Shown: positions 11,147 to 26,533 of the stretch, piece by piece
Layout of the letters: every line of letters starts with the position of its first letter
How positions within the stretch are numbered: position 1 is the stretch's first letter
Assembly (NCBI RefSeq): GCF_028613635.1
Contig: NZ_JAQRMY010000001.1
Span: 167,778-231,777, forward strand
Length of the DNA: 64,000 nt
Direction: 5' to 3'
Source: Devosia sp. ZB163
GTDB taxonomy: Bacteria > Pseudomonadota > Alphaproteobacteria > Rhizobiales > Devosiaceae
Position numbers and translations under genes: made by a program
The notes under the pieces: model-generated
What the model was told of the DNA's origin: nothing
Seen by the model: the letters and a program-made list of their open reading frames with translations, nothing else
The model's database searches: none

Positions 11147-12513
11147 TGGCGCGCCCCTATTCCCTGCGCCGGCGCCTCCTCGTCTGGCTCACCCTCGCGC
11201 TGATCGCCGTGGCGGCGCTGGCCATCGCCGATACCTGGCGCGAGGCGCGCGACACCGCCAGCTCGCTCTCCGACCGCGTCCTCGCCGGCTCCGTCCTCGC
11301 CATCGCCGAGCGCGTCATCGTCACCGAGGACGGTGCGCTCGAGGTCGACGTGCCCTATGTCGCGCTCGAGATGCTGACCTCCGCCGCGCAGGACCGCGTC
11401 TTCTACCGGGTCGATGGGCCGGCGGGCTTCATCACCGGCTACCAGAACCTGCCCACCCTCGCCGGGGCGGGACCGGAGATCGTCTATTCGGATGCCCATT
11501 TCCGCGGCGAGCCGATCCGCATCGCCGTGCTCCGCCGCGCCGCCTCGTCGGGCGTCAGCGCCATTCCCTTCACCGTGACCGTGGCCGAGACCACCATCGC
11601 GCGAAGCCAGCTGACCCAGACCCTGCTGCTGCGCTCCGCCATCCGCCTGACGCTCCTGATCGTCGTCGCCGGCATCATCCTCTGGCTCGCCGTCGGCTTC
11701 GCCCTCGCCCCGCTCTACCGGCTGCGCGACGCCATATCGAAGCGCGCGCTCGATGATCTGAGCCCGATCGAGCAGCAGGTGCCCAAGGAAGTGCAGGGCC
11801 TCGTCGATACGATCAACTCGTTCATGACCCGGCTGTCATCCGCGCTGGAGGCGCTGCGCCATTTCACCGGCAATGCCAGCCACCAGCTGCGCACCCAGCT
11901 CGCCCTCGCCCAGCGCGCCGAGACGCCCGAGGCCGCCCGCGCCGCCGCCGGCGCCGCCGATGCGGCGGTGGTGCACGCCGAGCGCGTGCTCGCCCAGTTG
12001 CTGCTGCTCGCTCGCATCGACGAGGCGGCGTCCGACCGGCTGGGCTTTTCCACCATCGATCTCACCGATCTCGCTCGCGAGCGCACCGGCGAATACGTCG
12101 TCCGCGCCCATGCCGCGGGCATCGACCTCGGCTTCGAGGGCGGCGAGCCTGCGCCGGTCGCGGCCGATCCGATGCTGCTCGGCGAACTGATCGGCAACCT
12201 GATCGAGAACGCCATGGCCTATGCCGGCGATGGCGCCGAAGCGACGGTTCGCGTGGTGCCGGAGGGCGATGATGTGGTGCTCGAGGTCGCCGATACCGGG
12301 CGCGGCCTACCCCAAGGCCAGGTCGCCACGGTGCGCAAGCGCTTCAGCCGCGGCGAAAGCGAAAGGCCGGGCGCGGGGCTCGGCCTTTCGATCGTCGAGG
12401 AGATTGCCGCGCTGTTCGGCGGCGCCGTGACGGTCGCCTCCGAAGCGGGCCGGGGCTTTGCCGTCACGGTCCGCCTGCCGCGGGCCAAATCCGATCAGAT
12501 CACTTCGAGATAG
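11146..12513 (+). CDS. Sensor histidine kinase (TctE-like)
   Basis: 455 residues: TM1 about 9-28, a periplasmic 2CSK-N-type sensor region about 30-165, TM2 about 167-190, HAMP, then HisKA with His246 in NASHQLRTQL, N-box LIENAMAYA, and G-boxes VADTGRGLP and GAGLGLSIVEE. In most TctE-type H-boxes the residue two after Arg is proline (HQLRTP); here it is Gln. That proline supports phosphatase/kinase geometry, so signalling balance may differ. ATG 11146 is preferred to TTG 11143. The last 19 bases overlap the convergent GH172 gene. Confidence 0.92.
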   Translation: MARPYSLRRRLLVWLTLALIAVAALAIADTWREARDTASSLSDRVLAGSVLAIAERVIVTEDGALEVDVPYVALEMLTSAAQDRVFYRVDGPAGFITGYQNLPTLAGAGPEIVYSDAHFRGEPIRIAVLRRAASSGVSAIPFTVTVAETTIARSQLTQTLLLRSAIRLTLLIVVAGIILWLAVGFALAPLYRLRDAISKRALDDLSPIEQQVPKEVQGLVDTINSFMTRLSSALEALRHFTGNASHQLRTQLALAQRAETPEAARAAAGAADAAVVHAERVLAQLLLLARIDEAASDRLGFSTIDLTDLARERTGEYVVRAHAAGIDLGFEGGEPAPVAADPMLLGELIGNLIENAMAYAGDGAEATVRVVPEGDDVVLEVADTGRGLPQGQVATVRKRFSRGESERPGAGLGLSIVEEIAALFGGAVTVASEAGRGFAVTVRLPRAKSDQITSR

Positions 12514-13622
12514 TCGGTATCCGGCAGCGGCTCGAACGGCACGGTCGGCAGCGTCTGGTACCAGAACGCGACGGACGCGATGTCGTCCTGCAGCGGCAGG
12601 TAGCGCCGGTCCTTCTTCTCGGTGCGCCAGCCCAGCGCCTGAATGGTGACCTTCATGTCGCTCTCGAAGCGGATCGGGTCGCTCAGGTGCCAGCGATACA
12701 TGCCGAAGCGGGTCTGGCTGCGATAGGTCCCGTCGGGGCGCAGCACCTGCGGCAGCCCGGAATACGGGGTCGAGAACTCGCGATAGCGGCTGTCCATGGT
12801 GTCATCGACCACGCCGCCGTCGAAATTGTAGGCGCCGCAGAAATAGTCCTCGGTGCCCGTGCCGCAGATGGTGGGGAAGTCCTTGTCGCCGTCCATGAAG
12901 AACTTGATCTCGCCCTCGCCCCACCAGCCGGCATTGTTGACGCCCCAGGCCATGTAGGTGCCGACATACTGCCCGCGCCCCTTGATGCCGTCGATGATGG
13001 TGTAGTCCGTGCCGAACGGCAGCGGGTTGGTGCGGCGGAACTTGGCGTGGAAATAGGCCGCGTCCTCGGGCACCTCGGTGAGGGTGTAGTTGATCTGGTA
13101 GTAGATGATGCCGAACTCGGTCTTGTCCGTGTTCTCGATCTCGATGCGCGCGGCCTTCCGGAACGGCATCTCCCAGTAGCAGTTGAAGGCGCGGCCAGGG
13201 TTCACGCACACGGCCAGCGAGCTGATCTGGGCGAACTGGCCCCAGCCCGAGCAGAAGAAATCGCCGAGCGGCGCCTCGACCGAGGGGTGCTCCTGCCCGT
13301 CCCACCACATGCGGATGATGAGGCTGCGCCACCTGAGGTTCGCCGTGGTGAGCCAGATCTGCTGGATGGCGCCCATGCCCTCGATATCGGCAATGACGCG
13401 CTTCTCGCCTGGCTCGATCCGGATCGAGGGCGAGACCTTCCAGCCCAGCCCCGAGCCGTCGGGGCCGAGGCCGCGGGCATGCACGGCGCCGGTGCCTTCG
13501 GTGGCCATGCCACCCTTGCCCTTCTCGCCCGTGAAGTTCTCGGGTGAGAGGGAGCGGGTCTTGGCCGGACTCAGCCGGTAGAGGTTGGAGAGGTTGGAGC
13601 CGAGTCCGTTGAAAGAAGCCAT
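12495..13622 (-). CDS. GH172-type (DUF2961) glycoside hydrolase, probable exo-D-arabinofuranosidase
   Basis: 375 residues without a signal peptide, so likely cytoplasmic. DUF2961 features: GMGAIQQIWLT, then WWGEGEIKFFMDGD and GTGTEDYF; the glutamates in GEGE and TEDY are the probable catalytic pair. GH172 members act on furanosides (difructose dianhydride, alpha-D-fructofuranosides and alpha-D-arabinofuranosides). With GH116 and DUF4185 genes in the same locus, exo-alpha-D-arabinofuranosidase is the best guess. Last gene of the LacI-SBP-permease-permease operon. ATG 13622; an open extension beyond it is read-through into the permease gene. Confidence 0.85.
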   Translation of the reverse strand: MASFNGLGSNLSNLYRLSPAKTRSLSPENFTGEKGKGGMATEGTGAVHARGLGPDGSGLGWKVSPSIRIEPGEKRVIADIEGMGAIQQIWLTTANLRWRSLIIRMWWDGQEHPSVEAPLGDFFCSGWGQFAQISSLAVCVNPGRAFNCYWEMPFRKAARIEIENTDKTEFGIIYYQINYTLTEVPEDAAYFHAKFRRTNPLPFGTDYTIIDGIKGRGQYVGTYMAWGVNNAGWWGEGEIKFFMDGDKDFPTICGTGTEDYFCGAYNFDGGVVDDTMDSRYREFSTPYSGLPQVLRPDGTYRSQTRFGMYRWHLSDPIRFESDMKVTIQALGWRTEKKDRRYLPLQDDIASVAFWYQTLPTVPFEPLPDTDYLEVI

Positions 13623-25307: not shown

Positions 25308-26533
25308 TGCAGATTCACCGTAGCAACGCCACTGACGCGCTGGTGCGGGAAGAGCACCCCCACCCCTGTCCCCTCCCCGCAAGGGGGAGGGAGACGCCAA
25401 CTGCGATGCCGGTGTTCTGGTCTCCTCCCCCCTTGCGGGGGAGGGACAGGGTGGGGGGTACTCTTCTCGCGCTGTGCCATGCCTTGGCTCTGCTTGCCTT
25501 CGCCGTCGCCAGCCCCACCCTCGCCGCCGGCTACACCGTCACCTCCGAGAAGGTGAAGGCACTCACCGGCCCCAACGCTCCCGCGCCGATGAAGGGCCCG
25601 GACATCTGCGGCACCGACCTCGGCACCATGGCCGAGATCGACGGCAGGATCGTTCTCGCCTTCGGTGACACCTTCGGCTGGAAGGAGAACGCCTGCATCC
25701 GCTTCGGGCCGAACTGGCGCTCCAACGTGGTCGCCTTCACCTCGGACCTCGACGCCTCGGACGGCATCGTCATCGACGACTGGGTGACCGGCGACGACGG
25801 CAAGGCGGTCGAGATCGCGAGGGGCGGGCACCAGGACGCGTTCAAGGGCGAGCAGACCAAGATCCCCACCGCCATGGTGACGGTCGGCGATACGCTCTAC
25901 CTCCATTACATGTCGGTGAACGGCTTTTCGTCGATGGGTGGGGTGTGGCTCTGCAACTTCTCGCGCTTCATCTCGTCGACCGATGGCGGCAAGACCTGGA
26001 GCCCGGGGCCGGACGAGTTCGGCAGCTTCAAGTCGAGCTTCAACATGCTGGCGCTGTCGGCCCAGCCGGGCGCCGGCAACGAGGACGGCCAGTACGTCTA
26101 TGCGGTCGGCACGCCCTGCGGCCGCTTCTCCGGAGCCCGCGTCGGCCGTGTTGCGGCGGACAAGGTGCTCGACACCAAGGCCTGGGAATACTTCGACGGC
26201 AGCGGCTGGGTCAGCGATCGGGCGCAGGCCGTGGAAGTCATCAAGCCCGGTGCCGGCGAAGGCTCGCTGGTCTGGAACCCCGGCATCAAGCTCTGGATGT
26301 ACACCACACTCAACGAACTCTCGGAAGCCATCGAGCTGCGCTTCGCCGAGCGGCCGGAAGGCCCGTGGTCGGCGCCCGAGGTGCTGGCCCGCGGCTCCGA
26401 CTACGCCCAGGCTTACAACGCCTACATGACCCCGTCATGGATCGCCGAGGATGGGCTGAGCTTCTGGTTCGTGATGAGCCAGTTCGGGCCGTACAACACC
26501 TACGTGATGAAGGCCACGCTGACGCCGGAGTAA
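25307..26533 (+). CDS. Secreted DUF4185 (GH183-type) protein, probable endo-D-arabinanase
   Basis: 408 residues from ATG 25307 or 360 from GTG 25451. From residue 49 on: signal peptide (GGTLLALCHALALLAFAVAS, cleavage near LAA), then a five-bladed-propeller-like DUF4185 domain with TDLGTM and FGDTFGW, whose aspartates match the conserved acidic pair of the family, plus bulge SSTDGGKTWSPG. DUF4185 proteins include the GH183 endo-D-arabinanases. Residues 16-48 are encoded by a palindromic repeat. ATG 25307 is coupled to the ATPase stop, while GTG 25451 has GAGGGACAGG just upstream; the latter gives a normal signal peptide, so it is the more likely functional start. Confidence 0.82.
   Translation: MQIHRSNATDALVREEHPHPCPLPARGRETPTAMPVFWSPPPLRGRDRVGGTLLALCHALALLAFAVASPTLAAGYTVTSEKVKALTGPNAPAPMKGPDICGTDLGTMAEIDGRIVLAFGDTFGWKENACIRFGPNWRSNVVAFTSDLDASDGIVIDDWVTGDDGKAVEIARGGHQDAFKGEQTKIPTAMVTVGDTLYLHYMSVNGFSSMGGVWLCNFSRFISSTDGGKTWSPGPDEFGSFKSSFNMLALSAQPGAGNEDGQYVYAVGTPCGRFSGARVGRVAADKVLDTKAWEYFDGSGWVSDRAQAVEVIKPGAGEGSLVWNPGIKLWMYTTLNELSEAIELRFAERPEGPWSAPEVLARGSDYAQAYNAYMTPSWIAEDGLSFWFVMSQFGPYNTYVMKATLTPE
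25354..25459. repeat. GC-rich palindromic repeat, copy 4, overlapping a gene start
   Basis: A variant with GCAA/TTGC loops: CCCTCCCCGCAAGGGGGAGGG (25370 region) and CCTCCCCCCTTGCGGGGGAGG (25424 region), 45 bases apart. It lies between the operon-coupled ATG of the DUF4185 gene and its signal peptide, is open in that frame, and its last bases supply a ribosome-site-like GGGAGGGACAGG for GTG 25451. Confidence 0.8.

What the first reader, a model, noticed from the sequence alone, without database searches (positions are those of the whole stretch)
12495..26533. A candidate D-arabinan utilisation locus in an alphaproteobacterium
GH172 (DUF2961), GH116 and DUF4185 genes sit in two divergent operons around one LacI gene, with two CUT1 importers. 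Seen in sequence: the DUF4185 protein has a signal peptide while the GH172 and GH116 proteins have none. Known: GH183 (DUF4185) endo-D-arabinanase, GH172 exo-alpha-D-arabinofuranosidase and a GH116 exo-beta-D-arabinofuranosidase have been reported as enzymes degrading mycobacterial arabinogalactan and lipoarabinomannan. Inference: the cell cuts D-arabinan outside, imports the oligosaccharides and finishes hydrolysis in the cytoplasm. This would be an arabinan scavenging system in a Gram-negative soil bacterium.
Basis: partly seen in the sequence, partly recalled or inferred. Interest (0 to 1): 0.9.

Follow-up and report, generated by a model that had tools for sequence, protein, structure and literature searches.

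The report
Likely D-arabinan-eating gene cluster in Devosia
A Gram-negative bacterium of the Devosia group carries a regulated gene cluster that looks built to cut up, import and digest D-arabinan, a sugar polymer best known from mycobacterial cell walls but also made by at least one relative of this bacterium.

Summary
Window 12495-26533 carries two divergent operons: LacI, a CUT1 importer and GH172 on the minus strand; a second CUT1 importer, GH116, a UgpC-type ATPase and a signal-peptide-bearing DUF4185 (GH183) protein on the plus strand. The genome is Devosia-like. GH172 is 58% identical to the exo-alpha-D-arabinofuranosidase ExoMA1, lies in its clade and keeps the Asn that excludes fructofuranosides. 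DUF4185 keeps the catalytic residues of EndoMA1, its best fold match. GH116 is ExoMA2-type, not glucosidase-type, but the diagnostic residues are invariant in all 91 rows examined, so its specificity is the weakest step. Nine of 136 family genomes carry DUF4185; all nine carry the locus-type GH116. An overlapping double operator, conserved in 12 of 13 relatives, sits between the operons. I found no report of such a locus in Proteobacteria in the library searched. Verdict: new variant of a known kind of locus, predicted and not assayed.

The parts
12495..13622 (-). GH172 (DUF2961), predicted exo-alpha-D-arabinofuranosidase, no signal peptide
   Evidence: PF11175 333 bits; best solved relative ExoMA1 8ic8, 434.6 bits; 58.2% identity, Asn at the position of ExoMA1 N253; catalytic Glu equivalents E236 and E258 (after DgGH172c E233/E254)
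13649..14482 (-). CUT1 permease (UgpE-like) of importer 2
   Evidence: BPD_transp_1 60 bits; UgpE-like, below that model's cut-off
14579..15517 (-). CUT1 permease (UgpA-like) of importer 2
   Evidence: BPD_transp_1 54 bits; UgpA-like, below that model's cut-off
15703..17040 (-). Solute-binding protein of importer 2, Tat-like leader (sub-threshold)
   Evidence: SBP_bac_1 130 and 132.5 bits, TAT_signal 17 bits against cut-off 22.7; best solved relatives 4qrz and 7bvt, the two that PMC10509167 names for the SBP of the Microbacterium D-arabinan locus
17124..18131 (-). LacI-family repressor, first gene of the left operon
   Evidence: PF00356 67 bits, Peripla_BP_3 93 bits
18169..18200 (.). Two overlapping LacI-type operators 12 bp apart, AATGGATTTGTGAATGCATT and AATGCATTTGCAGATCCATT
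   Evidence: 0 expected by chance in the window; both sites, 12 bp apart and with at most 2 mismatches, upstream of LacI in 12 of 13 relatives, one site in L023; no other convincing copy in the genome
18422..19675 (+). Solute-binding protein of importer 1, Sec-type signal peptide (by eye and hydropathy)
   Evidence: SBP_bac_8 113 bits; weak solved relatives, among them arabino-oligosaccharide-binding 6rjy
19748..20755 (+). CUT1 permease of importer 1 (start uncertain)
   Evidence: BPD_transp_1 58 bits
20761..21615 (+). CUT1 permease (UgpE-like) of importer 1
   Evidence: BPD_transp_1 62 bits
21619..24186 (+). GH116, subfamily-4 type, predicted exo-beta-D-arabinofuranosidase, no signal peptide
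   Evidence: PF12215 180 and PF04685 128 bits; best solved relative ExoMA2 8ic6, 447 bits, 37.6% identity; E393/H408/R445/D524 equal ExoMA2 E431/H446/R483/D557
24189..25307 (+). UgpC/MalK-type ATPase, the only ATPase in the locus, presumably shared by both importers (inference)
   Evidence: 457 bits to UgpC NF008653, cut-off 432
25307..26533 (+). DUF4185 (GH183) predicted endo-D-arabinanase with signal peptide; start uncertain (25307, 25406 or 25451)
   Evidence: PF13810 254 bits; EndoMA1 8hhv 144 bits; D104, D121, R273, E318, Y370 equal EndoMA1 D33, D51, R198, E243, Y293; AlphaFold model (pLDDT 71) best matches 8hhv, E 2e-22
25371..25444 (.). Pair of G+C-rich palindromic repeats overlapping the 5' end of the DUF4185 frame
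   Evidence: repeat family, 10 matches counted over both strands in the window, 0.07 expected; the encoded motif also in L028 and L029 at the same place

Best explanation
A LacI-controlled uptake and catabolic locus for D-arabinofuranose glycans. The exported DUF4185/GH183 protein cuts internal alpha-D-arabinofuranosyl bonds in the periplasm or beyond (shown: family, catalytic residues, predicted fold; inferred: activity and place). Two CUT1 importers sharing one UgpC-type ATPase bring in the oligosaccharides (inferred). In the cytoplasm GH116 removes beta-D-Araf ends and GH172 removes alpha-D-Araf ends, giving D-arabinose (GH172 well supported by homology, GH116 moderately). LacI binds an overlapping double operator between the operons and represses both until an inducer appears (operator shown by conservation; binding inferred). 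D-arabinose is then used by a route that does not involve a FucI-type isomerase (route unknown).
For: Closest solved relatives of all three enzymes are the three D-arabinan enzymes of Microbacterium. GH172: 58% identity to ExoMA1, clade support 99/98, Asn kept; the alphaFFase1 plus DgGH172c clade is separate, 100/100. DUF4185: catalytic residues kept in all 8 Devosia rows; best fold matches EndoMA1, then AraH2 by a narrow margin over sialidases. Linkage: 9 of 9 DUF4185 genomes carry locus-type GH116, in 8 of 9 within 1.2-1.5 kb with the ATPase gene between (in the ninth, G086, on separate short contigs). All nine also have a GH172 match; in G042 (D. sediminis) the slot beside LacI holds a DgGH172c-group GH172 instead, and both groups include a proven alpha-D-arabinofuranosidase (PMC10115798, PMC10509167). 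A relative without importer 2 keeps the rest (L024/L045). Localisation matches the Microbacterium model.
Against: No assay. GH116 is only 37.6% identical to ExoMA2, while 72 of 75 GH116 rows from loci L051-L121 are 43-49% identical to it and Devosia paralogues 59-64%; of those 71 loci only L079 shows a GH172 and none a DUF4185 in the stretch held. ExoMA1-type GH172 occurs in Devosia, Paenibacillus and Parabacteroides without DUF4185 or GH116 nearby. The DgGH172c-group rows of Devosia are about as close to the fructofuranosidase alphaFFase1 (42-48%) as to DgGH172c (45-46%). EndoMA1 W138 is Phe, P141 Gly and L292 Ala here, so the binding cleft differs. No FucI-type isomerase in this genome or nine others, no outer-membrane uptake gene in the locus, and the operator does not reach other genes.
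Confidence: 0.77

Rival explanations
1. Same machinery, but the natural substrate is D-arabinan or D-arabinosylated glycan made by Gram-negative neighbours (Devosia polysaccharides, rhizobial and roseobacterial glycans) rather than mycobacterial arabinogalactan or lipoarabinomannan. (The rivals are not mutually exclusive, so the odds do not sum to one.)
For: Devosia submarina makes a 20.7 kDa cell-wall-associated polysaccharide of ->2)-alpha-D-Araf-(1->5)-alpha-D-Araf-(1-> (PMC8707391). Tateyamaria omphalii has a DUF4185 gene about 4 kb from UbiA-family, DprE1-like and DprE2-like genes. Relatives of that DprE1-like protein lie on 64 plasmid records, 34 of them Rhizobium. Some GH183 and most tested GH172 enzymes act on Pseudomonas pilin D-Araf glycans (PMC10115798).
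Against: A beta-D-Araf-ase suits mycobacterial caps but is not needed for the published Devosia polymer. I know of no test of a GH183 enzyme on that alternating 2-/5-linked polymer. The cassettes hint at D-arabinose activation, not at a D-arabinan polymer, and none of the three Tateyamaria proteins reaches the cut-off of a D-arabinose-pathway model (best models of UbiA and SDR are generic).
Confidence: 0.3
2. Recycling or remodelling of the cell's own D-arabinan.
For: A congener makes such a polymer (PMC8707391).
Against: No DprE1 over cut-off in this genome (best 49.8 bits against a cut-off of 500; the Tateyamaria homologue scores 417 on the same model) and no match to the Tateyamaria UbiA protein (a search without its own positive control). 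Two importers and a LacI repressor point to nutrition.
Confidence: 0.05
3. A catabolic locus for mixed or other furanose glycans in which GH116 has a different beta-glycosidase activity and D-arabinan is only part of the diet.
For: Six of six fetched Devosia paralogue loci carry an importer-GH116-ATPase module (GH116 59-63% identical) with no GH172 or DUF4185 (L152-L157); the GH116 residues do not discriminate inside the subfamily; three GH116 rows of other phyla (L063, L078, L081) are closer to ExoMA2 (41-42%) than the window's is.
Against: All nine genomes with DUF4185 also carry the locus-type GH116; ExoMA2, with the same four residues, showed activity on the beta-D-Araf substrate only (PMC10509167).
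Confidence: 0.2
4. The endo-enzyme acts only in the periplasm on oligosaccharides released by other microbes, so the strain is a cross-feeder and not a primary degrader.
For: Plain signal peptide, no lipobox seen by eye, no secretion or TonB-type gene among the families found in the locus; D. epidermidihirudinis keeps a form of the locus without DUF4185 (L047/L151).
Against: Secretion by a system encoded elsewhere in the genome was not tested.
Confidence: 0.45

Closest known systems
D-arabinan utilisation locus of Microbacterium arabinogalactanolyticum (EndoMA1/2, ExoMA1, ExoMA2; PMC10509167)
   Same: GH183 with signal sequence, GH172 and GH116 without, an ABC sugar importer; closest solved relatives of all three enzymes
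   Different: One GH183 and two importers here against four GH183 genes and one putative importer there; LacI and double operator; no isomerase or kinase gene in the locus; a Gram-negative host with an outer membrane
D-arabinan PUL42 of Dysgonomonas gadei (PMC10115798)
   Same: GH172 and GH183 genes, and a putative GH116 gene, in one locus of a Gram-negative
   Different: PUL42 is a Bacteroidota polysaccharide utilisation locus and includes a predicted fucose isomerase; here ABC importers and no FucI-type isomerase found in the genome
alphaFFase1 (GH172 alpha-D-fructofuranosidase, 7V1V)
   Same: Same GH family, conserved GEG and GTGTED motifs with the catalytic Glu residues
   Different: Other clade (100/100) and Gly instead of Asn at the position that excludes fructose
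GH116 beta-glucosidase TxGH116
   Same: Same GH family and, per PMC10509167, the same catalytic pair in space
   Different: His/Arg (ExoMA2-type) instead of Asp/His at the two substrate positions named in PMC10509167

Membership tests
GH172 exo-alpha-D-arabinofuranosidase (ExoMA1 type) | DUF2961 domain and catalytic glutamates | tested here: met
   333 bits; E236 and E258 match DgGH172c E233 and E254
GH172 exo-alpha-D-arabinofuranosidase (ExoMA1 type) | Asn at ExoMA1 position 253 and place in the ExoMA1 clade | tested here: met
   Asn; 19-row clade, support 99/98, all 19 with Asn
GH172 exo-alpha-D-arabinofuranosidase (ExoMA1 type) | Activity on pNP-alpha-D-Araf | not testable with these tools
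   needs assay
GH183 endo-D-arabinanase | DUF4185 domain, five-bladed propeller | tested here: met
   254 bits; predicted model pLDDT 71, best fold matches 8hhv and its mutant, then 8an0; blade number not counted
GH183 endo-D-arabinanase | Nucleophile D33, acid/base D51, E243, R198 | tested here: met
   conserved in all 8 Devosia rows; R and E are not kept in the weak hit L147
GH183 endo-D-arabinanase | Endo-activity on D-arabinan | not testable with these tools
   needs assay
GH116 subfamily 4 exo-beta-D-arabinofuranosidase (ExoMA2 type) | E431, D557, H446, R483 | tested here: met
   but the same in all 91 rows, so not diagnostic within the subfamily
GH116 subfamily 4 exo-beta-D-arabinofuranosidase (ExoMA2 type) | Closer to ExoMA2 than to GH116s of other loci | tested here: not met
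   37.6% to ExoMA2 against 43-49% for 72 of 75 rows of loci L051-L121 and 59-64% for Devosia paralogues
D-arabinan utilisation locus | GH183 + GH172 + GH116 + importer clustered and conserved together | tested here: met
D-arabinan utilisation locus | D-arabinose isomerase and kinase | tested here: not met
   no FucI C-domain in 10 of 10 genomes searched; of six FGGY matches in the genome five were scanned and none reached the cut-off of TIGR01315
D-arabinan utilisation locus | Induction by D-arabinose or D-arabinan | not testable with these tools
   needs culture

The most novel reading that the evidence does not exclude
A D-arabinan cycle exists within the Alphaproteobacteria: some members make D-arabinan or D-arabinosylated surface glycans (the Devosia submarina polysaccharide; DprE1/DprE2/UbiA-like cassettes in rhizobia and roseobacters), and others such as this Devosia evolved a dedicated ABC-type locus to eat it, ending in a non-isomerase route for D-arabinose. 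D-arabinan degradation would then not be primarily an anti-mycobacterial trait.
Probability: 0.3. Interest if true: 0.68.

Novelty: new variant of a known kind. Interest (0 to 1): 0.52.

Why it matters
Genes for endo-D-arabinanase were identified in 2023 (PMC10115798, PMC10509167), with active proteins from Actinomycetota, Dysgonomonas, Myxococcus and a Gordonia phage. A conserved, LacI-controlled ABC-type locus in Devosia would extend D-arabinan use to Alphaproteobacteria, offer a compact enzyme set for analysing mycobacterial glycans, and link to the little-noticed report that a Devosia makes a pure D-arabinan, which makes the question of who feeds on whose D-arabinan testable.

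Tried and rejected
Self-recycling: no DprE1-like gene over cut-off and no hit to the Tateyamaria UbiA in this genome; rejected as main reading. Fructan or difructose-anhydride locus: rejected by clade and residue 253; an alphaFFase1-like GH172 with Gly exists in another Devosia (L041), which shows the contrast. GH116 beta-glucosidase: disfavoured by H408/R445; finer specificity unresolved. 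D-arabinose route: FucI absent; of the five FGGY proteins scanned one is GlpK and one XylB over cut-off, two are XylB-like below it and one is weak (the sixth match, L126, was not scanned); 28 MR/MLE matches in the genome, ten scanned against NCBIfam at E 1e-60, six with a sugar-acid dehydratase hit, four with none, none named for D-arabinonate; no route identified. A LacI regulon: one further weak operator match (2-3 mismatches, with 1 match of the reversed control pattern) lies inside a frame that reads by eye as urease alpha subunit, taken as chance. The SDR gene 26960-27946 beside DUF4185 was not detected in the other full loci and is left out. A wider actinobacterial comparison was not possible, so the origin of a presumed horizontal transfer is open. 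Structure of GH116 was not predicted. In the GH172 tree 13 Devosia rows were dropped for thinning and ten rows added; the program warned of long branches, ExoMA1 among them. The 91 GH116 rows include the same genome twice in several cases.

Full report
What is there. Window 12495-26533 encodes two divergent operons (gene calls from frames and starts; families). Minus strand: LacI, an SBP, two CUT1 permeases, GH172. Plus strand: an SBP, two CUT1 permeases, GH116, a UgpC-type ATPase (the only one) and DUF4185. The neighbours are TctC/TctA-type transporter genes, another SBP and a two-component system on the left and an SDR gene on the right; I do not count them in. Contig lengths and titles of the nearest relatives (Devosia sp. 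Root413D1, Devosia sp. 66-14, D. insulae) make this a Devosia-group genome; its own name is not known.

GH172. The best solved relative is ExoMA1 (8ic8, 434.6 bits). Identity is 58.2% to ExoMA1 against 38-43% to alphaFFase1, DgGH172c and BACUNI. In a 31-row tree the window protein falls in a 19-row clade with ExoMA1 (support 99/98), every member with Asn at the position of ExoMA1 N253; alphaFFase1 (Gly) and DgGH172c lie in another clade (100/100). PMC10509167 (abstract, results and discussion read) says this Asn blocks fructofuranosides. Both glutamates that PMC10115798 found catalytic in DgGH172c are present. Caution: ExoMA1-type GH172 also occurs without the other two genes: in L035 beside LacI and an Opp-type ABC importer (the one such locus scanned; L036-L038 show the same GH172-LacI pattern), on a Devosia A8/3-2 plasmid, and on a Paenibacillus and a Parabacteroides plasmid.

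DUF4185. EndoMA1 and its D51N mutant are the only solved sequence matches (144 bits); identity is 38%. The nucleophile, acid/base, essential Glu, substrate Arg and stacking Tyr are conserved in all eight Devosia rows; W138 is Phe, P141 is Gly, L292 is Ala in seven and Ile in one. An AlphaFold model from eight sequences (pLDDT 71, pTM 0.79) matches 8hhv at E 2e-22 with TM 0.77, then AraH2 8an0 at 1.2e-8; the lead of AraH2 over sialidases (4.6e-8) is narrow. Its N-terminus carries a hydrophobic leader, as do its relatives, though in three of seven the start is uncertain.

GH116. The best solved relative is ExoMA2 (447 bits, 37.6% identity). The four residues named in PMC10509167, including His and Arg in place of the glucosidase Asp and His, are present, but they are invariant in all 91 rows. 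Of the 71 loci L051-L121 only L079 shows a GH172 and none a DUF4185 in the stretch held, and 72 of their 75 GH116 rows are closer to the window protein (43-49%) than ExoMA2 is. The nearest Devosia paralogues (59-64%) form importer-GH116-ATPase modules on their own in six of six fetched loci (L152-L157). So GH116 fits the reading but does not prove it.

Linkage. Of 136 genomes of the family, 41 have a GH172 match, 25 a GH116 match, 11 a GH116 at least 70% identical, and 10 a DUF4185 match, nine over the cut-off. All nine are among the eleven (Fisher p 1.6e-12; 1.2e-4 within the 19 same-genus genomes; relatedness not corrected), and in eight of nine DUF4185 follows GH116 within 1.2-1.5 kb with the ATPase gene between. 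The other two of the eleven are G018 (D. epidermidihirudinis), a locus without DUF4185 and importer 2, and G095, a fragment on a short contig. In a class-wide sample of 385 genomes, six match DUF4185, three over the cut-off, and only this genome strongly (254 bits against 54 and 47). In D. sediminis the GH172 slot beside LacI is held by a DgGH172c-group enzyme, and in Root413D1 both groups stand in tandem. Each group includes a proven alpha-D-arabinofuranosidase, but the Devosia rows of the DgGH172c group are about as close to alphaFFase1 (42-48%) as to DgGH172c (45-46%). One relative lacks importer 2 (L024/L045), so importer 1 plus the three enzymes and LacI is the core.

Regulation. Between LacI and SBP1 lies AATGGATTTGTGAATGCATTTGCAGATCCATT (18169-18200), two overlapping palindromic operators; none is expected by chance in the window. 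Both sites, at the same 12 bp spacing and with at most two mismatches, lie upstream of LacI in 12 of 13 relatives; L023 has one site. Genome-wide, one other weak match lies inside a frame that reads by eye as urease alpha subunit, and the reversed control pattern also gives one match. LacI is thus predicted to govern this locus alone.

What is missing. PMC10115798 reports a predicted fucose isomerase and PMC10509167 a putative isomerase and kinase with their D-arabinan loci. No FucI C-domain was found in ten of ten genomes, nine of them DUF4185 carriers (the model does ring in E. coli). The genome has 28 MR/MLE matches, so an oxidative route is possible but not shown. No outer-membrane transporter was found in the locus.

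Substrate. PMC8707391 (abstract and passages) reports that Devosia submarina makes a cell-wall-associated polysaccharide of ->2)-alpha-D-Araf-(1->5)-alpha-D-Araf-(1->. A Tateyamaria plasmid has DUF4185 about 4 kb from UbiA, DprE1-like and DprE2-like genes. None of these reaches the cut-off of its D-arabinose-pathway model: DprE1 417 against 500, DprE2 200 against 250, DPPR synthase 145 against 234; the UbiA and SDR proteins score best on generic models. Its DprE1-like protein has relatives on 64 plasmid records, 34 of them Rhizobium, and its UbiA on 84, 36 of them Rhizobium. This genome has no DprE1 over cut-off.

Literature. In the library held here GH183 occurs in four papers, DUF4185 in six, GH172 with GH116 in one. 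Searches joining Devosia with arabinan (4 papers), with arabinogalactan and lipoarabinomannan (1) or with D-arabinose (9), and D-arabinan since 2023 (16), gave no report of such a locus by titles and abstract starts; two further joint searches found nothing. Of PMC10115798 I read the abstract, the first part of the results, sections 13, 14, 15 and the discussion. The stem 'proteobacteri' occurs in the main text of neither 2023 paper; 'Pseudomonadota' was searched only in PMC10509167 (none). PMC10115798 does list Myxococcus. Their supplements were not readable here.

Noticed in passing
L180 (NZ_CP019313.1) 24694-34035: Tateyamaria omphalii plasmid with DUF4185 about 4 kb from UbiA, GtrA, DprE1-like and DprE2-like genes (all below the specific cut-offs): a possible D-arabinan or D-arabinosylation cluster in a roseobacter.
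   Followed up: partly
Plasmid records H43-H66 and H68-H91: Rhizobium plasmids, many from nodule isolates, carry UbiA and DprE1-like genes side by side (gap about 0.5 kb in CP001077 and NZ_CP013567), suggesting D-arabinose activation in rhizobia.
   Followed up: partly
L048/L150 (D. sediminis) and L009/L028 (Root413D1): Replacement and tandem arrangement of two GH172 groups at the same slot of the locus.
   Followed up: partly
L041 2704-4203 and 8202-9545: A Devosia locus with an alphaFFase1-like GH172 (65% identity, Gly) and an ExoMA1-type GH172 about 4 kb apart.
   Followed up: no
L035 285-5424: In another Devosia, ExoMA1-type GH172 sits with LacI and an Opp-type ABC importer, without GH116 or DUF4185: perhaps a different D-arabinoside uptake module.
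   Followed up: partly
L152-L157: Paralogous SBP-permease-permease-GH116-UgpC operons with their own LacI in Devosia, substrate unknown.
   Followed up: partly
window 9154-9243, 15549-15647, 25371-25444, 26607-26906, 49916-49935: A G+C-rich palindromic repeat family (10 matches over both strands, 0.07 expected); one pair overlaps the signal-peptide region of the DUF4185 frame here and in L028 and L029, so the repeat may have become coding or supplied a new start.
   Followed up: partly
L079 (Spirochaetales MAG): SBP-permease-permease-GH116-GH116-GH172 cluster without DUF4185 in a spirochaete.
   Followed up: no
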